Positions 7,025 to 41,578 of a stretch of 63,334 nucleotides of DNA are shown one piece after another. The DNA is from a virus. The notes beneath the pieces are model-generated. The model saw only the letters and a list, made by a program, of their open reading frames with translations, made no database searches and was not told the origin of the DNA. A program made the position numbers and the translations under genes. Where the stretch lies: the IMG/VR virus record IMGVR_UViG_3300021961_000090, positions 1-63,334 of that record; one strand, written 5' to 3'. Every line of letters starts with the position of its first letter. Position 1 is the stretch's first letter.

Positions 7025-7605
7025 ATTTCCCCCTTACGTATCGCAGCAGCTATAGCCAGTGTGCCGTAGCCTTCCATGCCCATCTTCTTAACTAATAAAG
7101 CAATAGCTTCTCTGTCCTCACGCTGTGGTGGGGCGGTGTAGAGTGGCACATCATCATCTTCAGGCTTTAATCCAAGATTTGTTTTCCAATCAGTTTTGCC
7201 ATGCGCTGCTACCGCTTGCATATACAACAGTTCACGTTCTTTTATCCACGCCACCGGCTCCTGCTCTGACTGCTTTACGCTGGCTCGTCCTTTCTCATAC
7301 CCTGCCGCCCAAGCGTTACTCACCTCGTGCCGCCACCATTTCTCTGAGCGTTGCTCTGGCTGCACGTTTTCACGTTCGCACCCTGTTTCCTTGCAAAACC
7401 CGCCGCAACTTGGGCATTGTCTATCCCGCTGTTTGGGTGGCTTACTGAATCCAGCCGCAGACCAGTCTGGTTCCTCTGGCTGCGCGAGTCGATCTCGTAG
7501 AGCTTCTTTTATTTCAATTATTTTTCTAGCCCAAGCTGAGTTGCCGCCATCAACAAAAATCTTCAACACATTCAATGCTTGCTGCATTAACTCTCGGTCG
7601 GTCAC
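7021..7605 (-). CDS. Hypothetical early protein with CPSCGG site
   Basis: 194 residues. Contains CPSCGGFCKETGC, a likely zinc site, then EPVAWIKERELL and a later DVPLYTAPPQRE, two linked motifs seen in many Gram-negative phage accessory proteins of unknown function. It ends EGYGTLAIAAAIRKG, a sequence echoed at the end of the gene at 8050 (DGYGTLAAALLIRERG), so the two share a C-terminal module. Overlaps the exonuclease gene by 4 bases. Confidence 0.65.
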   Translation of the reverse strand: MTDRELMQQALNVLKIFVDGGNSAWARKIIEIKEALRDRLAQPEEPDWSAAGFSKPPKQRDRQCPSCGGFCKETGCERENVQPEQRSEKWWRHEVSNAWAAGYEKGRASVKQSEQEPVAWIKERELLYMQAVAAHGKTDWKTNLGLKPEDDDVPLYTAPPQREDREAIALLVKKMGMEGYGTLAIAAAIRKGEM

Positions 7606-7931
7606 GGCGCACCTCTCTCGCGGATAGCGAACGCGCAGTCTGCCGGATTTGCGTCAGCGTACTCATCGCCTAGCGCGTCACAGATTGCTGCACACATTTC
7701 GCGCTCGTCTTCCCTAGCCCTTCTTACCGCAACACAAGCAGGTCGATCACAGTGTGGGTGGCATGTATGAAGCTCCTCCCACTGCCACTTTTCGCGCTCC
7801 GCTGCTGCGACTAGGTTGGCAAAGCGTTCAAGTTGTTCATGGTCAAACACGACGCCCCAACCGTTGAAATACTCAAGTTGCTTGCCATTACAGGCTTCTT
7901 CAGCCATGCGAATAATGTCATCTCTGGTCAT
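7602..7931 (-). CDS. Hypothetical early protein, ERCA-like
   Basis: 109 residues starting MTRDDIIRMAEEACNG. Segment LERFANLVAAAEREKWQWEE is typical of phage MazG-adjacent small proteins; a Cys/His group follows (CHPHCDRPAC) and the C-terminal EREMCAAICDALGDE is the ERCA-type motif. The tail FAIRERGAP is shared with the gene at 8050. Role unknown. Confidence 0.65.
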   Translation of the reverse strand: MTRDDIIRMAEEACNGKQLEYFNGWGVVFDHEQLERFANLVAAAEREKWQWEELHTCHPHCDRPACVAVRRAREDEREMCAAICDALGDEYADANPADCAFAIRERGAP

Positions 7932-7933
7932 CC

Positions 7934-8053
7934 CTACCCCCAAACCACACCAAGAACAAAATAAGTAATTGCCAGCACGTAGGCAAAGCGACGAGGCAAG
8001 TGCGGCGCAAGAAACGCTACCCCTGCTAACACAAACATTTGCTTGTCAGTCAT
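7934..8053 (-). CDS. Small hydrophobic membrane protein
   Basis: 39 residues (MTDKQMFVLAGVAFLAPHLP, then RRFAYVLAITYFVLGVVWG). Two hydrophobic stretches joined by a basic PRRF turn suggest a tiny inner-membrane hairpin. The ATG overlaps the stop of the upstream gene (ATGA). No family recognised. Confidence 0.6.
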   Translation of the reverse strand: MTDKQMFVLAGVAFLAPHLPRRFAYVLAITYFVLGVVWG

Positions 8054-8262
8054 GGCGCACCTCTCTCGCGAATGAGCAGCGCCGCTGCTAGCGTGCCATA
8101 ACCGTCAATTCCTGCTTGCTCTGCAACTCTCGCACACGCCTCGCGCTCTTCTTCCACCGCCTTGGTAACAACACGCAGCATCATCAAATCAAAATCAAAT
8201 TTGTCCATGCCCGCGTTCTTATAAACCTCATCCCTGATCCGGTGGTATTCTTCTTTGGTCAT
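8050..8262 (-). CDS. Hypothetical early protein, ERCA-like
   Basis: 70 residues starting MTKEEYHRIRDEVYKNAG; the ATG at 8262 has the ribosome site AGAGG, better than the TTG at 8277. Contains EEEREACARVAEQAG and ends RERGAP like the gene at 7602, so the family has expanded within the operon. Function unknown. Confidence 0.6.
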   Translation of the reverse strand: MTKEEYHRIRDEVYKNAGMDKFDFDLMMLRVVTKAVEEEREACARVAEQAGIDGYGTLAAALLIRERGAP

Positions 8263-8471
8263 AGCTTCCTCTGACAAGTGAACGCCTGAATGTCCACGCG
8301 GAATGCCTGTGCAAACTTGCAGTCACTGGCCACCCGTCCTTCTGTCTGGACTATGCCTATCCATAGGCCAAGGAAGAATAGGAAGACCGCTACCAGGCTC
8401 TTCGCCCAGATCCGATTGACCCATTCCCACGCGGCCTGCCAGTTGAATGTCTCAAATAGTTTGTCGCTCAT
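8259..8471 (-). CDS. Single-pass membrane protein
   Basis: 70 residues starting MSDKLFETFNWQAAWEWVNR. The central SLVAVFLFFLGLWIGIV is a transmembrane helix; the C-terminal ~25 residues contain two Cys and would lie outside the cytoplasm if the basic-inside rule holds. Its ATG overlaps the stop of the first gene of the operon. Confidence 0.6.
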   Translation of the reverse strand: MSDKLFETFNWQAAWEWVNRIWAKSLVAVFLFFLGLWIGIVQTEGRVASDCKFAQAFRVDIQAFTCQRKL

Positions 8472-8698
8472 CACCACGCCCGCTTGTTGGTTATCGCCCG
8501 GCCAGACCAATGGCCACTGAACGGCTGATGCACAAACACCCGTAGTCCCAATCTGGGATCTTTCTCACCATGAAAGAACTTCTCCGGCGCTATTGCTTTT
8601 ACCATCTGGATAGTGTCGTTAAACTCATCGCGATCCCGCGTTTCCTTGAACCGACGATGCGCTTCCACCAAGATTTGCCGATGCTCATCACTCAACAT
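8471..8698 (-). CDS. First gene of the leftward early operon
   Basis: 75 residues starting MLSDEHRQILVEAHRRFKET. The ATG at 8698 is preceded by GGAGGGCGAT, a strong ribosome site, about 12 bases from the predicted transcription start. The middle (NDTIQMVKAIAPEKFFHGEK then PRLGLRVFVHQPFSGHWSGR) looks like a compact soluble domain. Being promoter-proximal it should be among the earliest proteins made; function unknown, a host-takeover role is possible. Confidence 0.6.
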   Translation of the reverse strand: MLSDEHRQILVEAHRRFKETRDRDEFNDTIQMVKAIAPEKFFHGEKDPRLGLRVFVHQPFSGHWSGRAITNKRAW

Positions 8699-8716
8699 AT
8701 CGCCCTCCTTCATCTA

Positions 8717-8745
8717 AATATAGTTCGACATCTAGTGTATGTCAA
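8717..8745 (-). promoter_or_regulatory. Strong sigma-70 promoter of the leftward operon
   Basis: Read on the minus strand: TTGACA (8745-8740), a 17-base spacer, then TATATT (8722-8717). The -35 is a perfect match and the -10 differs at one position. Transcription would start near 8710, giving a very short leader before the ATG at 8698. Confidence 0.85.
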
Positions 8746-8780
8746 CAGTTTATTTGTAACAGGAACAGTGTATTGAAAAG

Positions 8781-8794
8781 TGGCAACGTTGCCA
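8781..8794. promoter_or_regulatory. Perfect palindrome TGGCAACGTTGCCA, candidate operator
   Basis: A 14-base perfect palindrome followed by TT. The same 14-mer occurs at 20155-20168, just in front of the LexA-type DNA-binding gene. Here it lies 35 bases upstream of the leftward promoter and ~60 bases before the rightward small-RNA promoter, where a repressor or activator could act on both. Confidence 0.55.
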
Positions 8795-8853
8795 TTTTGC
8801 CCTGAAAACCCGCATGTTTCCTAGAGCTGCCAATACATGAGTTTGTGTGCTAT

Positions 8854-8862
8854 TGTTATATT
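8854..8862 (+). promoter_or_regulatory. Extended -10 promoter of the small-RNA candidate
   Basis: TGtTATATT is an extended -10 element (TGn followed by TATATT at 8857-8862). No good -35 is visible at 17 bases, as is usual for this class. Start predicted near 8869. Confidence 0.5.
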
Positions 8863-8868
8863 GAAGCT

Positions 8869-8966
8869 GCCTGATCTGCTCTCTTTCTCCTCTGATCAGG
8901 TTTCTTCGCGGCGGCAATGCTCCTTCGGGAGTTGAGGGCGCGACGATCTCCGGCGCCCTCTTTTTT
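8869..8966 (+). ncRNA. Candidate small RNA of about 98 nt
   Basis: Bounded by an extended -10 promoter and an intrinsic terminator, with no start codon and ribosome site. Three hairpins can be drawn: CCTGATC pairing with GATCAGG (about 8870-8900), CTCC-TTCG-GGAG with a stable UUCG loop (about 8921-8932), and the terminator stem. This is the layout of trans-acting or attenuator RNAs. No known family recognised. Confidence 0.5.
8934..8966 (+). terminator. Rho-independent terminator
   Basis: GAGGGCGC (8934-8941) pairs with GCGCCCTC (8953-8960), followed by six T. Strong eight-base GC-rich stem; orientation rightward. Confidence 0.85.
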
Positions 8967-8970
8967 GTCG

Positions 8971-8999
8971 TTGATGTCAATACATTGTTCCGGTACACT
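8971..8999 (+). promoter_or_regulatory. Sigma-70-like promoter for the large structured RNA
   Basis: TTGATG (8971-8976), exactly 17 bases, then TACACT (8994-8999); each hexamer matches the consensus at four positions. It begins four bases after the preceding terminator, so the two transcripts are insulated. Predicted start near 9006, where the first structured helices begin. Confidence 0.6.
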
Positions 9000-9005
9000 C
9001 TCAAT

Positions 9006-9665
9006 ATCGAAAGCGGATACTGCCGAGTTCCCGGACACACCACCGGATGAGAGAAGCGGCAGGCGTAGCGAGTAGTGACAGCCAGGAAAGACTGGCCACT
9101 TGCATCACATCTGAATCTGTCCTACACTGTGCGCGTCACTGTGTGGGCAGCGACGAAACTGAAGCCTCAAGCTTTGGTTCTCACCCTTCGGGGACGTGCC
9201 CACACACGGAGAGCCAAGCCTTGAGGCTTTTTTCATGGGCGCTCTCCTGACCGTGCAAGAGTCTATCGGGTAAAGCATCCAAGGCTACGGCTGGAACTGA
9301 GTAACCGTAAAGCGTCATGGCGGCGGGGAAAGGGTAGATCCTATGGTACAGATGCGCTACGTTCTGGCTTGCATGTATTCCCGGACAGAAGAATCCACAG
9401 CCGGGCGCGTAGGAAGACGTGACGTAACAGTAGCTGCCTTGGATGGCGACACCAATCCGGTTCTTCAATGGGACGGTAGACGGTGGTGAGGATAGCGTTG
9501 CTCCCCAGATACGTGGTTAGGGAAAGCCGTGAGTCACACGGATAAATTCTGGGGAATAGGAATGGCCACTGACAGGCTGTTCCCCTGCGCCGGCGAAACG
9601 ACCGACCGACGACATGGAAAGGTCTTAAGGGTAGACTGCTGTCTGCCCTAGGAAGATCTTTGCCT
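9006..9665 (+). ncRNA. Large highly structured RNA, about 650 nt
   Basis: No convincing reading frame fills this stretch, but paired segments do. Examples: CTGCCG 9020-9025 with CGGCAG 9057-9062 enclosing a CCGG/CCGG stem; GCCAG with CTGGC near 9080-9096; a ~21-bp arm 9162-9182/9208-9230; TCCCCAGA 9502-9509 with TCTGGGGA 9548-9555 enclosing CCGTG/CACGG; GGAATGGCC 9559-9567 with GGCTGTTCC 9575-9583; and nested helices 9618-9626/9653-9661 and 9628-9636/9641-9649. Several helices use G-U pairs that work only if the plus strand is transcribed. Size and phage setting recall the large ornate RNAs GOLLD and ROOL, but I cannot confirm homology. It could alternatively be a long leader of the methyltransferase gene. 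Confidence 0.65.
9162..9233 (+). terminator. Long hairpin followed by T6, possible internal terminator
   Basis: AAGCCTCAAG (9162-9171) pairs with CTTGAGGCTT; the arm continues with CTTTGGTTCTC against GAGAGCCAAGC (two G-U pairs, one mismatch). The loop holds a CCC-TTCG-GGG mini-hairpin. Six T follow at 9228-9233. It may terminate a ~228-nt RNA starting near 9006, or be a structural arm of the larger RNA with partial termination. Confidence 0.55.
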
Positions 9666-9697
9666 GCTGAAGCTCACTCCCTCCCTTCAACATAACT

Positions 9698-10231
9698 ATG
9701 CTACTGACAGACTTCACAACTGACACGGACAAGTTTGATCTTGGATACGTAGACTGCTTCTACCAGAGGTTGTTCTGCCGGCGGGCGGTTGGGCGGCTGC
9801 TGGAGATTGGGATGTACAGGGGTGAGAGTATCCGGCTCTGGCGGCAGGCTTTCCCCGAGGCTGAGATATACGGCGCTGACATCCAACCTTGTCCGGCGGT
9901 TGCGAATCTGGAGCGGGTGGTGCAGCTGGTGGGGGATGCCTACACGCCAGGATTTGTGAAGGGTCTGCCGACATTTGATGTGATCATCGATGACGGTCCT
10001 CACACTTTTGCTTCTATGGCCTTCTTCCTACAACACTACCTGCCACTGTTGAATGACGGCGGCGTGATGGTGCTGGAGGATATTATCGATCCCGCTTGGA
10101 CGCCAGACCTGCTGCTGCTGATTCCTGGTGGCTACAGGGTGGAGGTGGTAGACATGCGCGGCAAACAGAAAACACCAGAACTGCTGAAGAAATGGCAGCA
10201 CGGGCTGGATGTGATCATCATCCAGAAGTAA
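9698..10231 (+). CDS. Class I methyltransferase (Methyltransf_24/TylF-like)
   Basis: 177 residues. RLLEIGMYRGESIRLWRQAF is motif I with the glycine turn, YGADIQPCP the ribose-binding acidic loop, and FDVIIDDGPHTFASM the motif IV with the DDGxH metal/substrate site of macrocin- and cephalosporin-type O-methyltransferases. Hence probably sugar O-methylation. The ribosome site is weak and the gene directly follows the structured RNA, whose 3' part could act as its leader. Partners may be the glycosyltransferases at 1053-2602 and 43000. Confidence 0.8.
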   Translation: MLLTDFTTDTDKFDLGYVDCFYQRLFCRRAVGRLLEIGMYRGESIRLWRQAFPEAEIYGADIQPCPAVANLERVVQLVGDAYTPGFVKGLPTFDVIIDDGPHTFASMAFFLQHYLPLLNDGGVMVLEDIIDPAWTPDLLLLIPGGYRVEVVDMRGKQKTPELLKKWQHGLDVIIIQK

Positions 10232-10308
10232 CTATCACAAATTCCCTGACGATATAAATTCACAATTGGACACAATAGTCTGTTCCGGTAGGATGTCAAC
10301 TGTCGTTC

Positions 10309-10400
10309 GGCACGGCATGTTCGGGCGTGGCGTGGTCCGGCGGGGCAGTGCCTGGCATGGTGAGTTGCGGTTGGATACGGCTGGTTGGGGTTGGGTAAGG
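10309..10400 (+). repeat. Pentamer array GGCNN, block 1
   Basis: Eighteen consecutive pentamers in unbroken 5-base phase, most starting GG (GGCAC, GGCAT, GGCGT, GGCGT, GGTCC, GGCGG, GGCAG, GGCAT, GGTGA, GGTTG, GGCTG, GGTAA). Degenerate but strictly phased; ends exactly where the first 56-nt structured unit begins. No ribosome site or frame uses it. Confidence 0.85.
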
Positions 10401-10456
10401 GCTGCTGTGCAGCGTACAGATAGTTCTCTGAGCTTTCTGTGCGATGCGTAAGCGTC
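10401..10456 (+). ncRNA. Three-hairpin RNA unit, copy 1
   Basis: 56 bases. Hairpin 1: GCTGC-TGT-GCAGC (10401-10413). Hairpin 2: ACAGA near 10416 with TCTGT 10436-10440, extended by AGT/GCT with one mismatch. Hairpin 3: GATGC-GTAA-GCGTC (10443-10456), a GNRA tetraloop with one U-G pair. See copies 2 and 3 for covariation. Confidence 0.8.
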
Positions 10457-10460
10457 ATCG

Positions 10461-10512
10461 GGCACGGCGTGGCAAGTTGCGGCGGGGCAAGCACCGGCAC
10501 GGCTAGGCAAGG
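10461..10512 (+). repeat. Pentamer array GGCNN, block 2
   Basis: Ten pentamers in phase (GGCAC, GGCGT, GGCAA, GTTGC, GGCGG, GGCAA, GCACC, GGCAC, GGCTA, GGCAA) filling the gap between RNA copies 1 and 2. Confidence 0.85.
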
Positions 10513-10568
10513 GCTGCTATGCAGCGTTCAGCAGGTTGATTCAGTCTGCTGAGCGATGCGTAAGCATT
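10513..10568 (+). ncRNA. Three-hairpin RNA unit, copy 2
   Basis: 56 bases. Hairpin 1: GCTGC-TAT-GCAGC. Hairpin 2: TCAGCAGGTT (10528-10537) with AGTCTGCTGA (10543-10552), ten pairs including two G-U; its base pairs differ from copy 1 on both arms, i.e. compensatory change. Hairpin 3: GATGC-GTAA-GCATT with a G-U closing pair. Confidence 0.8.
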
Positions 10569-10572
10569 ATCC

Positions 10573-10615
10573 GGTCTGGCAAGGATTGGCAGGGCCAGGC
10601 GGGGTGTGGCACGGA
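10573..10615 (+). repeat. Pentamer array GGCNN, block 3
   Basis: Eight pentamers in phase (GGTCT, GGCAA, GGATT, GGCAG, GGCCA, GGCGG, GGTGT, GGCAC) between RNA copies 2 and 3. Confidence 0.85.
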
Positions 10616-10671
10616 GCTGCTAGGCAGCGTACAGGGGCTTGTAAAAGGCTTCTGTGCGATGCGTGAGCATC
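10616..10671 (+). ncRNA. Three-hairpin RNA unit, copy 3
   Basis: 56 bases. Hairpin 1: GCTGC-TAG-GCAGC. Hairpin 2: ACAGGGGCT (10631-10639) with GGCTTCTGT (10647-10655), nine pairs with three G-U. Hairpin 3: GATGC-GTGA-GCATC, all Watson-Crick, with a different GNRA loop from copies 1 and 2. Confidence 0.8.
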
Positions 10672-10675
10672 ATGA

Positions 10676-10725
10676 GGTTCGGTTAGTCCCGGCTGGGTCT
10701 GGCAGGACTTGGCAAGGTATGGTTT
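10676..10725 (+). repeat. Pentamer array GGCNN, block 4
   Basis: Ten pentamers in phase (GGTTC, GGTTA, GTCCC, GGCTG, GGTCT, GGCAG, GACTT, GGCAA, GGTAT, GGTTT), ending a few bases before the ribosome site TAGGAG of the next gene. Confidence 0.85.
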
Positions 10726-10743
10726 TTAACTAGGAGAAAGATA

Positions 10744-11358
10744 ATGTCAAAAGCAAAACAAGTCGCTGAAGTAAGTAATGGTGGTGCGGAATCCATTGAA
10801 ATTGGGTTCCCGTATGTGGCGCATGTCACGATCGAAGGCAACACAGATTTCCTTTTCCATCGCTGGAATTGCGAAGCTGTTGAAACAAAAGCAAAAGCAC
10901 CTAAAAACTCTGCATTAAAAAAGTTTGACGATATTGAGTCTTACGTTTGGCGTAATGACGCTGGTGAGCTGTGCTGTCCAGGCGAGTACTTGCGGCAATC
11001 AATCATCATGGCCTCGAAGTTTAAGCAGGATCCCCGTTCCCCCCGTAAGAGCGCGATGGATCTGACGAAGGCTGGGTTAGTCAGCCTTACTAACTTGGCC
11101 TCATTCGGCAAAACCACATGGGATTACGAAGACAAGCGCCGCGCTGTAGTCCAGCGGCAGGCTGTCAATCGCGTCCGCCCAGCCATCTCCGCAGGCTACA
11201 GGCTTGATTTTGATTTGATGGTGCTGGTGCCAGAATACATCGATAAGTTCTGGCTGCAAGATACGTTACACATGGCTGGCCGGCTGGTCGGGATAGGCGA
11301 CTTCCGCCCAACGTACGGACGATTTAATGTAGTGTCGTTTAATGTTTCTGAAAACTAA
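10744..11358 (+). CDS. Conserved phage protein, possible RAMP-like fold
   Basis: 204 residues with a good ribosome site (TAGGAGAAAGATA). Recognisable family features: NTDFLFHRWNCEAVE, a Lys/Ala-rich stretch, DDIESYVWRNDAGELCCPGE, QDPRSPRKSAMDL and a C-terminal VGIGDFRPTYGRFNVVSF. I have seen this family in uncultured tailed phages without a function. The GIGDFRPTYGRF turn (about residues 183-194) resembles the glycine-rich loop of RAMP/RRM-fold RNA-binding proteins such as Cas5/Cas7. It is flanked on both sides by pentamer arrays and preceded by three structured RNA units, so RNA or repeat binding is a reasonable but unproven idea. Confidence 0.75.
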   Translation: MSKAKQVAEVSNGGAESIEIGFPYVAHVTIEGNTDFLFHRWNCEAVETKAKAPKNSALKKFDDIESYVWRNDAGELCCPGEYLRQSIIMASKFKQDPRSPRKSAMDLTKAGLVSLTNLASFGKTTWDYEDKRRAVVQRQAVNRVRPAISAGYRLDFDLMVLVPEYIDKFWLQDTLHMAGRLVGIGDFRPTYGRFNVVSFNVSEN

Positions 11359-11362
11359 TTCT

Positions 11363-11432
11363 GGCTAGGCGAGCCGTGCTCAGGCAAGGTTTGGTTTTGT
11401 GGGGTCAGCTACGGTCAGGTATGGCATGGGTA
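11363..11432 (+). repeat. Pentamer array GGCNN, block 5
   Basis: Fourteen phased pentamers (GGCTA, GGCGA, GCCGT, GCTCA, GGCAA, GGTTT, GGTTT, TGTGG, GGTCA, GCTAC, GGTCA, GGTAT, GGCAT, GGGTA) start five bases after the stop of the 10744 gene. No 56-nt structured unit is present in this block. Confidence 0.8.
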
Positions 11433-11455
11433 GTTCAAAACGATTAGGAGGGCGT

Positions 11456-12745: not shown

Positions 12746-12786
12746 GCCCAAGCCGGCGGGCGTGTGTGCCGGAGGAGGAGGAATGT

Positions 12787-14280
12787 ATGTCGCTTGAACT
12801 CCGTAGTTATCAGGAGGATGCTCTGACATTACTACGTCAGGGCTTTGCAGAAGGTAAGAAGTCGCAGGTGTTGGTAGCGCCTACGGGTGCTGGCAAGACT
12901 GAGATGGCCATAGCATTGATGAAGGCTGTCAAGGAGAAGGGTAACAAAGCGGCCATGATTCTTGACCGCATTGTTCTGTGCAACCAAACCAGCAAGCGGC
13001 TAGAAAAGTACGGTATCGATCACGGTGTACTGCAATCAGGACATTGGCGCTACCGCCCGTATGAAAACATCCAGGTTTGTTCTGCCCAAACGCTAGAGAA
13101 GCGCGGGGAGTTTCCCGATCTCGACCTTCTTATAATCGACGAGGCGCATCAAACGCGCAAGGCAACAGTCGATTTCATCAAAGCCAACCCGCACATCCGT
13201 GTCATAGGTCTGACTGCTACGCCATTCACCAAAGGTTTGGGCAAGGTCTATGACAACGTGGTTAGTCCTGTCACCACTAAGCATTTGGTAGGTGAGCAGC
13301 TGCTAGTACCGCTTCGTGTGTTCATCGCCAAAGAGATTGATATGTCTGGCGCGACGAAGGTTGCGGGCGAGTGGTCGCAGGCAGATGCAACTGAGCGCGG
13401 CATCAAGATCACCGGCGATGTAGTGGCAGAGTGGATTAAGAAAACTCATGAGATATTTGGTGCGCCACGCAAGACCATCGTGTTCTGTGCAGGTGTCGAT
13501 CATGGCGTAGATCTGTCACGGAAGTTTGCGGACGCAGGTTATAACTTTGTGTGCGTCAGCTACAAGGATGATGACGAGTGGAAGCGCGACATTATTGAAG
13601 ATTTCAGTCGGGCAGATACCAAAATTCATGGCCTGATTGCAACCGATATTTTGACCAAAGGATTTGATGTGCCGGACGTAATGATCGGCATATCTGCGCG
13701 GCCATTCAGCAAGAGTCTGTCATCACACATTCAGCAGATGGGTCGTGTGATGCGGGCGAATCTAAATAATCCGGCAGACAAACCATTCGCTGTCTGGCTG
13801 GATCACAGCGGCAACTATCTCAGATTCCAAGAAGATTGGGATGATGTGTTTGAGAATGGTGTGCGCAGGTTAGATGACGGCAAGGAAAAGCCAAAGCCGG
13901 AACCGTCTGAGCGCAAGAAGAAGGACAGTAAGTGTCCGGCCTGTCACGCATTGTGGGTAGTGGGTGAGGACAAGTGTATTAACTGTGGTCATGTGAGGGA
14001 AAGGGTCAATGCAGTACGCACAACTGATGGAAAGATGGAAGAACTTATTGCTGGCGTTGGAGTCAGTCGATCCTCGAAGCAGCACTTCTGGAACCAGATG
14101 GTCTGGTATCAGCGATACAAAGGATGGTCAAGCGGACGCGCGGCACACACCTACCGAGAGCAGTTCGGAGTCTGGCCGCGTGGACTAGATGACAACAAGC
14201 CTGTGATGCCGACGATGGAAACTCAGCGGCTAGTGGATAAAAAACTAAGACAGTTTCTTAAGACGATAGGACGGAGATAA
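12787..14280 (+). CDS. Superfamily II DNA/RNA helicase with C-terminal zinc ribbon
   Basis: 497 residues from ATG 12787, preceded by GGAGGAGGAGG. Motif Q RSYQEDAL, Walker A VAPTGAGKTEMA (about 30-41), Walker B LLIIDEAHQTRK, motif III VIGLTATPF, then HGLIATDILTKGFDVPDV (motif V) and HIQQMGRVMRA (motif VI) place it with SSL2/RecG-type DEAH helicases. After residue ~385 a CPACHALW...CINCGH zinc ribbon is added. Likely opens DNA for phage replication with the primase encoded downstream. Confidence 0.92.
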   Translation: MSLELRSYQEDALTLLRQGFAEGKKSQVLVAPTGAGKTEMAIALMKAVKEKGNKAAMILDRIVLCNQTSKRLEKYGIDHGVLQSGHWRYRPYENIQVCSAQTLEKRGEFPDLDLLIIDEAHQTRKATVDFIKANPHIRVIGLTATPFTKGLGKVYDNVVSPVTTKHLVGEQLLVPLRVFIAKEIDMSGATKVAGEWSQADATERGIKITGDVVAEWIKKTHEIFGAPRKTIVFCAGVDHGVDLSRKFADAGYNFVCVSYKDDDEWKRDIIEDFSRADTKIHGLIATDILTKGFDVPDVMIGISARPFSKSLSSHIQQMGRVMRANLNNPADKPFAVWLDHSGNYLRFQEDWDDVFENGVRRLDDGKEKPKPEPSERKKKDSKCPACHALWVVGEDKCINCGHVRERVNAVRTTDGKMEELIAGVGVSRSSKQHFWNQMVWYQRYKGWSSGRAAHTYREQFGVWPRGLDDNKPVMPTMETQRLVDKKLRQFLKTIGRR

Positions 14281-38796: not shown

Positions 38797-40181
38797 TGCC
38801 ACTAATCCTCAAAAACAGAGTCAAGTCCACTACCACGACGACGGGTACTGGCACGATCACGCTCGGCTCCGCTGCGGCAGGCTATCAGGATTTCTCTGTC
38901 ATTGGTAACGGCAACGAAACCTACTACGTCATCAAGAGCGCGACAGAGTGGGAAGTTGGCAAGGGTACGTACACTTCTTCCGGTACCACGTTATCCAGAA
39001 CACAGGTCTTTGGATCGTCTAACAACGGTGCGTTAGTCAACTTTTCAGCAGGTACGAAAGATGTGCTGTGTGCTTATCCATCAGCAGCTACAGCAGGCGG
39101 TGTTCCGTATGGCGATGACAGCTCGGTAGGCACTGACTTATCAGGCTGGCAGGCGTTTTCTACAGCGTTGAATAATGGTGTAGTAGGTGGGCAGACGTTC
39201 GGGAACAATAATACGAACGGAGTGGTGAGTACGTATTCATTGGTTTATACGGCATCAAGTGCGTATAGGGGCGGTGTTTTAGATGTAAATGGAAATTTAA
39301 ATTTTATTCCTTTCTCTGGCGCGGTTGGGCAAAAAGTATCTTTAACAGGAGCTGTGTCAACATATTCAATTTTATTGTCTGGAGATGGATCAAAATATTC
39401 TGGCGGCGTTCTTGCCTCTAATGGGGATATTTATTTTGTGCCTTGGGTTTCGGTTGTAGGACAAAAGATAAACTCGTCTGGCGTTGTTTCAACTTATTCA
39501 AGTCTAAACAATAGTTATTCTGGAGGCGTTTTATCCCCAAGTGGAGAAGTGCATTTTATTCCGTTTGGCGCGGCTACAGGACAAAAAGTATCCGCATCGG
39601 GCGTTGTTTCAACTTACTCGTTGGTCTATACAAATGGGTCTGGCGCATACTTTGGAGGCGTATTAGCCCCTAATGGAGACATTCATTTTGTTCCTTATTC
39701 CGCCGCTGTTGGTCAAAAAATATCTACATCAGGAGTTGTTTCGACTTATTCTTTGGTATATACAAATACAGCGATAGCTGCATATTCTGGAGGCGTTTTA
39801 GCTCCTAATGGCGATATACACTTTATTCCCAGAAGCGGAGTTGTTGGGCAAAAAATATCTGCCTCTGGTGTCGTGTCTACGTATTCATTGGTATATACAA
39901 CAACTGGCGCATATTGGGGCGGCGTGCTTGCTCCCAACGGCGACATACATTTTGTTCCGGGAAGTGCAAATAGAGGTCAAAAAATATCCGCAGCGGGCGT
40001 TGTTTCTACTTACTCTTTGGCCTATACGATAGCCAATAGTTATACAGGTGGAATTTTGATGCCTAATGGCGACATACATTTTGTTCCGTTTAGCGCAGCC
40101 GTAGGCCAAAAAATCTCCACCAACCCCGGCGCACCGCTCGGCCCCGGCATTTGCCTTAGCCCATTCTTGAACAAGCTATGA
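38796..40181 (+). CDS. Propeller-type tail fibre 1
   Basis: 461 residues. Residues ~1-110 (LKNRVKSTTTTTGTGTITLG then GNGNETYYVIKSATEWEVGK) are the virion-attachment domain common to all three paralogues. Then seven ~41-residue repeats around GGVLAPNGDIHFVP, GQKIS and VVSTYSLVYT. Four strands per repeat and the count of seven point to a seven-bladed propeller. C-terminal cap ends SPFLNKL. GC content falls sharply where the repeats begin. Confidence 0.85.
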   Translation: MPLILKNRVKSTTTTTGTGTITLGSAAAGYQDFSVIGNGNETYYVIKSATEWEVGKGTYTSSGTTLSRTQVFGSSNNGALVNFSAGTKDVLCAYPSAATAGGVPYGDDSSVGTDLSGWQAFSTALNNGVVGGQTFGNNNTNGVVSTYSLVYTASSAYRGGVLDVNGNLNFIPFSGAVGQKVSLTGAVSTYSILLSGDGSKYSGGVLASNGDIYFVPWVSVVGQKINSSGVVSTYSSLNNSYSGGVLSPSGEVHFIPFGAATGQKVSASGVVSTYSLVYTNGSGAYFGGVLAPNGDIHFVPYSAAVGQKISTSGVVSTYSLVYTNTAIAAYSGGVLAPNGDIHFIPRSGVVGQKISASGVVSTYSLVYTTTGAYWGGVLAPNGDIHFVPGSANRGQKISAAGVVSTYSLAYTIANSYTGGILMPNGDIHFVPFSAAVGQKISTNPGAPLGPGICLSPFLNKL

Positions 40182-41578
40182 CATTCGTACTCAAAGACCG
40201 CATAAAGGTAACTAGCACCACGACTGGTACGGGTACGTTCACACTCGGCGCTGCGTCAACTGGTTATCAGGACTTCTCTGGCATCGGCAACGGTAATCAG
40301 ACTTACTACACGATCACCAATGGAACAGACTGGGAAGTAGGGATAGGCACTTACACTTCTAGCGGTACTACGCTGTCTCGGGATTATGTACTGGCGTCAT
40401 CTAACAGCGGCGCGAAAGTAGATTGGGCGGCAGGCAGTAAAGATGTCTACGTCCCGCAGCCCGCAGAGAACACGCAGGGATCAGCCCCGACAGCAGACAA
40501 CAGCAGTATTGGCACTGACGGGGTGGCGTTCGACAACTTCCAGAAGAACCTACAGCTAAGCGTCAACGGTGGTGTGACGTTTAAGAACAATAATACGAAT
40601 GGAGTGGTGAGTACATATTCGTTGATTTATACAACAAGCACTGGCGCTTATTCTGGTGGCGTTCTTTCCCCAAATGGAGATTTGCATTTTGTCCCAGAAA
40701 AAGCTGCAAGAGGGCAAAAAATAAATACAAGCACAGGTGTTGTTTCTACATATTCATTAATTTATACAACGTCTCTTGGCGGCGCGTACAGCGGTGGAGT
40801 ATTGGCTCCTAACGGTGATATACATTTTGTTCCATTTAGAGCGCCAAGGGGGCAAAAAATAAATGCGTCAGGCGTTGTTTCTACTTATTCTTTGGTATAT
40901 ACGGCAACTGAAGGATATTTGGGCGGCGTTCTTGGAGTTGACGGGTCAATATATTTTGTGCCACAAACTGGCGCCGTAGGGCAAAAAATATCTACGACTG
41001 GTGTTGTTTCTACATATTCATTAATTTATACAAACGCGTCTGGCGCATACTCTGGCGGAGTTTTAGCCCCTAACGGTGATATACATTTTGTTCCGCATTA
41101 CGCTGCCGTAGGGCAAAAAATATCTACGGCGGGAGTTGTGTCAACATATTCGCTAACCTACACCGCAAACAATGCGTATCAAGGTGGCGTTCTTGCGCCT
41201 AACGGAGATATACATTTTGTTCCACATGCTGCGGCAGTGGGTCAAAAAATATCGGCAACTGGAGTTGTGTCAACATATTCGTTGGTTTATACAACAAGCA
41301 GTGGGGCATATATTGGCGGCGTACTAGCCCCTAATGGGGACATTCATTTTGTTCCAAATTGGGCAAATAGAGGACAAAAAATATCAGCAGTAGGCGTTGT
41401 ATCTACGTACTCACTAAATTACACAGTTAATGATGCTTACGCAGGCGGAATACTTGCGCCAGATGGGAATATTTATTTTGTGCCTTCTGGTGCTGCCGTA
41501 GGTCAACGCATCTCCACCAACCCCGCCATACCTTTCGGCATAGACACTTGCCTAAGCTCTTACCTGAACAAGTTCTGA
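40178..41578 (+). CDS. Propeller-type tail fibre 2
   Basis: 466 residues, paralogue of 38796 (start overlaps its stop). Attachment domain with FVLKDRIKVTSTTTGTGTF, then seven repeats; cap SSYLNKF. Repeats in this copy have the highest mutual identity, especially AYSGGVLAPNGDIHFVP, but differ at the residues between strands, where ligand contacts would be. Confidence 0.85.
   Translation: MTFVLKDRIKVTSTTTGTGTFTLGAASTGYQDFSGIGNGNQTYYTITNGTDWEVGIGTYTSSGTTLSRDYVLASSNSGAKVDWAAGSKDVYVPQPAENTQGSAPTADNSSIGTDGVAFDNFQKNLQLSVNGGVTFKNNNTNGVVSTYSLIYTTSTGAYSGGVLSPNGDLHFVPEKAARGQKINTSTGVVSTYSLIYTTSLGGAYSGGVLAPNGDIHFVPFRAPRGQKINASGVVSTYSLVYTATEGYLGGVLGVDGSIYFVPQTGAVGQKISTTGVVSTYSLIYTNASGAYSGGVLAPNGDIHFVPHYAAVGQKISTAGVVSTYSLTYTANNAYQGGVLAPNGDIHFVPHAAAVGQKISATGVVSTYSLVYTTSSGAYIGGVLAPNGDIHFVPNWANRGQKISAVGVVSTYSLNYTVNDAYAGGILAPDGNIYFVPSGAAVGQRISTNPAIPFGIDTCLSSYLNKF

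What the first reader, a model, noticed from the sequence alone, without database searches (positions are those of the whole stretch)
9006..9665. About 650-nt ornate structured RNA with its own promoter
A terminator (8934-8966), then a 17-bp-spaced promoter (8971-8999), then some 650 bases without a credible gene but dense with nested helices, several needing plus-strand G-U pairs. This resembles in size and setting the GOLLD and ROOL families of phage-linked RNAs but I see no sequence I can tie to them. It could be a new large RNA class or a very distant relative.
Basis: partly seen in the sequence, partly recalled or inferred. Interest (0 to 1): 0.85.

Follow-up and report, generated by a model that had tools for sequence, protein, structure and literature searches.

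The report
Two new structured phage RNA genes
A stretch of a freshwater phage genome that makes no protein holds two adjacent, previously uncatalogued folded RNAs, a 100-base one with its own promoter and terminator and a roughly 430-base one behind it, and both keep their shape across dozens of related phages; the larger sits in a slot where a sister phage carries a completely different folded RNA.

Summary
Promoter A (8971-8999) starts a hairpin arm (r1a). A second promoter, TTGCAT-17-TACACT (9100-9128), starts r1b (9135-9233), a ~100-nt RNA whose 10-bp crossing (pseudoknot / loop-loop) helix is kept by covariation and whose long stem is an intrinsic terminator; r1b occurs in 51 distinct viral sequences. 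From 9251 lies r2 (to ~9680), a pseudoknotted RNA with no promoter of its own. A covariance model built without the window finds the r2 5' domain at 9251-9410 (29.5 bits, E 2.6e-4). About 35 phage copies of r2 are known here; 37 of 70 consensus pairs change on both sides. A sister phage 95% identical on both flanks carries an unrelated structured RNA in place of r2 plus its methyltransferase gene. No Rfam family, GOLLD and ROOL included, matches the region. Function is unproven; I favour an early RNA operon in which the r1b terminator gates r2. The RNA families and the exchangeable RNA slot are new as far as Rfam and my literature searches show.

The parts
8971..8999 (+). Promoter A, TTGATG-17-TACACT, upstream of r1a
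   Evidence: Read directly; the element TGTTCCKGTA with a -10 box is conserved before r1a in relatives
9005..9096 (+). r1a: hairpin arm with conserved internal loop GAAAGCnGAT (9009-) / GCGAGTA (-9074), variable inner arm, followed by hairpin GCCAGgaaagaCTGGC (9081-9096)
   Evidence: 14-sequence alignment A4; 23 distinct instances with changing outer stems. In the window itself the outer stem is weak
9100..9128 (+). Promoter B, TTGCAT-17-TACACT, six bases before the r1b start
   Evidence: -10 box at fixed distance in most of 50 upstreams; score >=8/12 in 34 of 50 against 7% of shuffles (the window's own scores 7)
9135..9233 (+). r1b: ~100-nt small RNA gene; hairpin H1 9135-9154, terminator hairpin H2 9162-9182 x 9209-9229, T-run 9228-9233
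   Evidence: Alignment A3, covariation; covariance model R1 hits; z -5.26
9140..9149 (+). 5' strand of the crossing (pseudoknot / loop-loop) helix, TGTGTGGGCA
   Evidence: 100% paired in 21 sequences, 6 of 11 pairs changed on both sides
9197..9206 (+). 3' strand of the crossing helix, TGCCCACACA, in the apical part of H2
   Evidence: own vs cross-phage pairing control
9251..9680 (+). r2: ~430-nt pseudoknotted RNA (type I member of the r2 type I/II family); 3' end approximate
   Evidence: Held-out covariance model R2 hits 9251-9410; homologue L058 over the whole length
9252..9259 (+). r2 helix P1, 5' strand CGTGCAAG (pairs with 9368-9375 CTTGCATG)
   Evidence: P1 own vs cross test, 7 of 7, permutation p 0.00025; coordinates
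9362..9405 (+). r2 P2 (TTCTG 9362-9366 x CAGAA 9386-9390, crosses P1) and P3 (CCCGG 9380-9384 x CCGGG 9401-9405, crosses P2)
   Evidence: in type II phages P3 is GCGC x GCGC
9254..10241 (+). Exchangeable cassette: r2 plus methyltransferase gene 9698-10231, replaced by 333 bp of type III RNA in sister phage L130
   Evidence: blastn of window against L130: 95.7% identity to 9253, 95.2% from 10242; Pfam Methyltransf_24

Best explanation
The block is an early non-coding RNA operon. Shown by comparison: r1b is a self-contained small RNA gene (promoter B, ~100 nt, intrinsic terminator) held together by a covarying helix between the loop of its first hairpin and the apex of its terminator hairpin; r2 is a separate pseudoknotted RNA that follows it and has no promoter. 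Inferred: host RNA polymerase starts at promoters A and B early in infection; most transcripts stop at the r1b terminator and give the free 100-nt RNA; a minority read through, or are cut at the long stem, and give r2, sometimes with the gene behind it, so the r1b fold gates r2. Also inferred: both RNAs act in trans as folded RNAs, most likely by binding and occupying a host or phage protein complex, because their shape is kept while the sequence of the shape-holding helices drifts freely, and because the r2 slot can be filled by different RNA classes.
For: r1b crossing helix 100% paired with 6 of 11 pairs changed on both sides, terminator stem 95.9% with 7, 0 of 500 shuffles for pairing and covariation; own loop/partner pairing >=7 bp in 49 of 51 sequences against 24% of cross pairings; promoter with -10 box at a fixed distance, 34 of 50 against 7% shuffled. 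r2: P1 in 7 of 7, p 0.00025, 26 of 29 against 21% cross; 17 of 31 pairs with both-side changes, 0/500; full length 37 of 70; held-out model hit in the window. No promoter at the 5' end of r2 in 35 copies. Same tandem order in MW202426.1 at another place in the genome. Slot swap against L130.
Against: No expression data. The gating and trans-action steps are inference. r2 folding energy is not better than shuffles (z -0.95). In several phages an ORF starts 5-22 nt after r2, which also fits a cis leader. In some type II loci no T-run was seen within 70 nt upstream.
Confidence: 0.45

Rival explanations
1. r1b and r2 form one long cis-regulatory leader: r1b is an attenuator and r2 a riboswitch-like or translation-controlling 5' UTR of the gene behind it.
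For: r2 has no promoter; an ORF starts 5-22 nt after the conserved CCACCA in many phages, and directly behind r2 in the window.
Against: The gene behind r2 changes (HNH nuclease, methyltransferase, others) and in L054, L064, L068, L070 and others no ORF starts directly behind it. r1b and r2 have no fixed downstream gene.
Confidence: 0.25
2. r2 with its cargo gene is a mobile homing-type cassette, and r2 may be a ribozyme (splicing or cleaving) that lets the cassette insert without harm.
For: HNH nuclease genes directly behind r2 in L055 and L058 (Pfam) and HNH-like proteins in L221, L226, L229, L230, L231; precise swap between sister phages.
Against: No group I or II intron or other ribozyme family of Rfam matches. 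The slot is filled by another RNA (type III) and not empty in the sister phage. Cargo in the window is a methyltransferase, not a nuclease.
Confidence: 0.15
3. RNA-only assemblies as in GOLLD and ROOL: the complementary loops pair between molecules and build rings or cages.
For: Variable but self-complementary loop pairs in r1b; GOLLD and ROOL are phage RNAs that use kissing loops between molecules (PMC12286853).
Against: No sequence relation to GOLLD or ROOL. Pairing within one molecule explains the data equally well.
Confidence: 0.1
4. No conserved RNA: chance inverted repeats in GC-rich intergenic DNA, or an unrecognised gene.
For: r2 energy z-score is only -0.95.
Against: Covariation far beyond shuffled, slid and cross-phage controls in both RNAs; indels and stops exclude coding.
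Confidence: 0.02

Closest known systems
ROOL RNA
   Same: Large multi-pseudoknot RNA carried by phages, function unknown, no fixed protein partner (PMC12286853)
   Different: No Rfam match; r2 is ~430 nt against 659 nt for the solved ROOL; no tRNA island; tandem with a terminator RNA and exchangeable slot not described for ROOL
GOLLD RNA
   Same: Large structured phage RNA of unknown function, found in lake and other metagenomes (PMC12286853)
   Different: No Rfam match; GOLLD often exceeds 800 nt and lies near tRNAs; none here
HEARO (HNH-associated RNA and ORF) / IscB omega-RNA
   Same: Structured RNA directly upstream of an HNH protein gene in some carriers of r2
   Different: No Rfam match; the HNH proteins in L055 and L058 are 117 and 160 aa with an HNH domain only; in the window the gene is a methyltransferase
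phi29 pRNA and phage small RNAs such as lambda oop, P4 CI RNA, T4 RNAs C and D (from my own knowledge)
   Same: ~100-nt phage RNAs; pRNA has covarying complementary loops
   Different: No Rfam match; this phage has a phrog_38-type large terminase, not the phi29 motor; the r1b stem is also its terminator

Membership tests
ROOL | Match to the Rfam covariance model | tested here: not met
   No match at gathering in the window nor at E<=5 in 8700-10760
ROOL | Located near a tRNA island | tested here: not met
   No tRNA in the window
GOLLD | Match to the Rfam covariance model | tested here: not met
   also none in relatives
GOLLD | Size (many members above 800 nt) | tested here: not met
   Units are ~100 and ~430 nt; size from PMC12286853
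ROOL / GOLLD | Forms RNA-only multimeric cages | not testable with these tools
   Needs biochemistry or cryo-EM
HEARO | Match to the Rfam model | tested here: not met
   (HEARO being in Rfam is from my own knowledge)
HEARO | Followed by an IscB-type (RuvC+HNH) gene | tested here: not met
   Window gene is Methyltransf_24; L055 and L058 genes show only an HNH domain
Group I / group II intron | Match to the Rfam intron models | tested here: not met
   No match at E<=5 in the window block, none at E<=2 in L054, L055, L064
tRNA / tmRNA | ARAGORN or Rfam detection | tested here: not met
r2 type I/II family defined here | Recovered by a covariance model built without the window | tested here: met
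   29.5 bits, E 2.6e-4 over 320 kb; next best window hit 12 bits
r1b family defined here | Promoter, H1, crossing helix, terminator hairpin in that order | tested here: met

The most novel reading that the evidence does not exclude
A previously unknown type of phage locus: a conserved small RNA whose loop-loop fold is also a transcription terminator and acts as the gate to an RNA slot into which phages swap unrelated classes of large folded RNA (types I/II, III and others), each doing the same job for the phage and sometimes carrying a homing nuclease as cargo.
Probability: 0.3. Interest if true: 0.9.

Novelty: new variant of a known kind. Interest (0 to 1): 0.75.

Why it matters
Large structured RNAs of phages with no known job are a long-standing puzzle. 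Here are at least three new families (r1b; r2 types I/II; type III), each with dozens of natural variants and clear covariation, in a fixed order, with a natural swap experiment between near-identical phages. That makes it directly testable whether such RNAs are interchangeable, what they bind and whether they are needed. The families can be added to RNA databases now; in MW202426.1 the region is annotated as hypothetical proteins.

Tried and rejected
Single 650-nt RNA: rejected (homologues split it). Rfam membership: none. tRNA/tmRNA: none. Coding: rejected. r1b in cellular genomes: 2 pattern hits in 257 Gb, about the number I expect by chance; the R1 model found nothing in those two loci. 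r2 in plasmids: none. Pattern scans for r2 type I alone found only L058 plus chance coding hits. RNAalifold on all 40 type III sequences gave a weak fold because of length variation; a 14-sequence set gave 57 pairs, 14 with both-side changes. My first script for type III stems failed on its patterns and the second was under-powered. R1 did not report the r1b-like RNA of MW202426.1; it was recognised by eye from position, promoter, hairpins and a 6-bp loop contact, so it is weaker evidence. Folding energy as proof for r2: rejected. Literature searches gave nothing describing these RNAs.

Full report
The window is a 63,334-bp IMG/VR virus record with phage terminase, portal, capsid, helicase and primase genes. 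The finding lies in the gap between leftward genes (PD-(D/E)XK nuclease and others, ending at 8713) and rightward genes (methyltransferase 9698, then 10744 onward). Rfam release 15 has no match in the window at gathering and nothing relevant at E<=5 in 8700-10760.

To see what is conserved I fetched 80 relatives of the helicase (12766-14280; 67-99% identity) and compared the region. The block breaks into units. r1a (9009-9075) is a hairpin arm with an invariant asymmetric internal loop, GAAAGCnGAT opposite GCGAGTA, and a variable inner arm; 23 distinct instances were found with changing outer stems. r1b (9135-9233) is found with its own promoter and terminator in many relatives, where other hairpin arms may be inserted between r1a and r1b.

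r1b: in 21 aligned sequences the helix 9140-9149 x 9197-9206 is 100% paired with 6 of 11 pairs changed on both sides, and the terminator stem 9162-9182 x 9209-9229 is 95.9% paired with 7 such pairs. None of 500 shuffles reaches the observed pairing, covariation score or both-side changes, and slid controls collapse. The two helices cross (H-type pseudoknot). In the wider family the 5' strand sits in the loop of a small hairpin H1 (e.g. TCTATG[TGTGGG]CATAGA in L129), so the contact can be read as a kissing loop between H1 and the apex of H2. A covariance model (R1) extended the family, including distant members at 27-40 bits with the same topology (L050, L081, L076, L065, L068). Over 51 distinct sequences the loop and its partner pair over at least 7 bp in 49, against 24% of pairings mixed between phages. 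A sigma70-like promoter with its -10 box mostly six bases before H1 is present at score >=8/12 in 34 of 50 against 7% of shuffled upstreams; the window's own promoter B scores 7/12. A tight pattern finds 55 viral stretches and, in 257 Gb of bacterial and archaeal genomes, two hits, about chance by my estimate. r1b is therefore a phage-borne small RNA gene.

r2: immediately downstream, 9251 to about 9680, the window aligns to L058 (78% mean column identity, gaps apart) with a consensus fold of 78 pairs, 13 changed on both sides. Weak matches led to a larger set (type II) in L054, L055, L064, L068, L070, then in 34 contigs by pattern and in the complete genome MW202426.1. All share CTATCGGG preceded by the 5' strand of helix P1, whose 3' strand follows GTTCT: own pairing runs 7-10 bp in 7 of 7, cross pairings average 4.45, permutation p 0.00025; in 29 sequences >=6 bp in 26, against 21% of cross pairings. 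P2 (GTTCT x AGAA) crosses P1, and P3 crosses P2. On 19 type II sequences the 5' domain is 93.5% paired, 17 of 31 pairs change on both sides, 0/500 shuffles. The full-length consensus of 14 sequences has 70 pairs, 37 with both-side changes. As a held-out test, model R2 was built without the window and L058: it hits the window at 9251-9410 with 29.5 bits, E 2.6e-4 in 320 kb, the next window hit being 12 bits (26.4 bits, E 9e-6 with filters off), and L058 at 20.8 bits. Energy alone would not have shown this: r2 has z -0.95 against shuffles, r1b z -5.26.

Arrangement: none of 35 r2 copies has a promoter at its 5' end (3% expected by chance), and a T-run lies 23-36 nt before CTATCGGG in most copies that have one within 70 nt, so r2 must be made by read-through of, or processing after, the terminator before it. 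In MW202426.1 a similar order (promoter, r1b-like RNA with a 6-bp loop contact, r2) lies downstream of the primase gene rather than upstream of the ParB gene, under hypothetical-protein annotations. In most r1b-bearing relatives of the window the slot holds a different RNA, type III (about 40 distinct sequences; 57 consensus pairs, 14 changed on both sides in a 14-sequence set), sometimes with a small ORF between r1b and it, and in L002 a fourth sequence type. The sister phage L130 is 95.7% identical over 8401-9253 and 95.2% over 10242-11443, yet has 333 bp of type III RNA where the window has 9254-10241 (r2 plus methyltransferase). The left break coincides with the r2 5' end. Genes directly behind r2 vary: HNH nuclease-like proteins in several phages (confirmed by Pfam for L055 and L058), methyltransferase in the window, others or none elsewhere.

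Mechanism. Shown (by sequence comparison): two structured RNA units, separate promoter-like sites A and B, a terminator at r1b, no promoter for r2, conserved tandem order, exchangeable slot. Inferred: early transcription by host polymerase; gating of r2 by the r1b terminator; action in trans as folded RNA, probably through a bound protein complex. The free drift of the helix sequences with pairing kept argues that shape, not an antisense target, is under selection. The main rival, a cis-acting leader, is weakened by the changing or missing genes behind r2. A homing cassette explains the swap but not why an RNA seems always to fill the slot.

Known families. GOLLD and ROOL resemble it in being large phage RNAs of unknown function (PMC12286853) but differ in size and setting and fail the covariance-model test. 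HEARO, intron, tRNA and tmRNA models also fail. I found no paper describing these RNAs in the open library, which does not hold most subscription journals or preprints. I call it a new variant of a known kind: new phage structured-RNA families in an arrangement I have not seen described.

Noticed in passing
window 8851-8966: r0: another promoter-to-terminator RNA unit just upstream (-10 TATTGT 8851-8856, terminator 8934-8966), present in many relatives, with pyrimidine loops rich in CTCC (36 in 14 sequences against 19.7 in shuffles, maximum 32), which could pair with Shine-Dalgarno sequences.
   Followed up: partly
window 10290-10740: r3: three copies of a three-hairpin motif GCTGCTnnGCAGCG-hairpin-GCGATGCGTAAGCRTCAT set in GGNNN five-base periodic sequence, upstream of gene 10744-11358 (phrog_4652); similar sequence precedes the same gene in L016 and L069.
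   Followed up: partly
window 8978-9004 and 10273-10299: A 27-nt promoter-like element (core TGTTCCGGTA) is repeated before r1a and before r3, and 10250-10306 is conserved in L002, L004, L006, L007 and L009.
   Followed up: partly
L004:5800, L018:743, L019:5310, L035:3637 and 3841, L026:2992 and others: Hairpin modules with a conserved base and a variable arm (ACGCATGAGGATT...TCCTCAGYCGTGTTG; GCGTAGGCTGATAC...GCCGGAGATCAGC) are chained between r0 and r1b in relatives, a modular RNA region.
   Followed up: partly
L061:873-1140 and about 40 other sequences: Type III: a ~270-nt strongly conserved structured RNA with no Rfam match in the loci scanned, downstream of r1b in most relatives; deserves its own study.
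   Followed up: partly
L215 (MW202426.1) 7505-8090: In this complete phage genome the r1b-like/r2 pair is covered by predicted hypothetical proteins that are probably spurious.
   Followed up: yes
L002:436-933 and L215:7650-7725: The fourth slot sequence of L002 shares AAGTGGGACTCWGAACCCAGCC with the stretch before r2 in MW202426.1, hinting at another shared RNA module.
   Followed up: no
window 39519-41357: Long in-gene tandem repeats (periods 129-135 and 261 bp) in consecutive genes with no PHROG match for the one tested.
   Followed up: no
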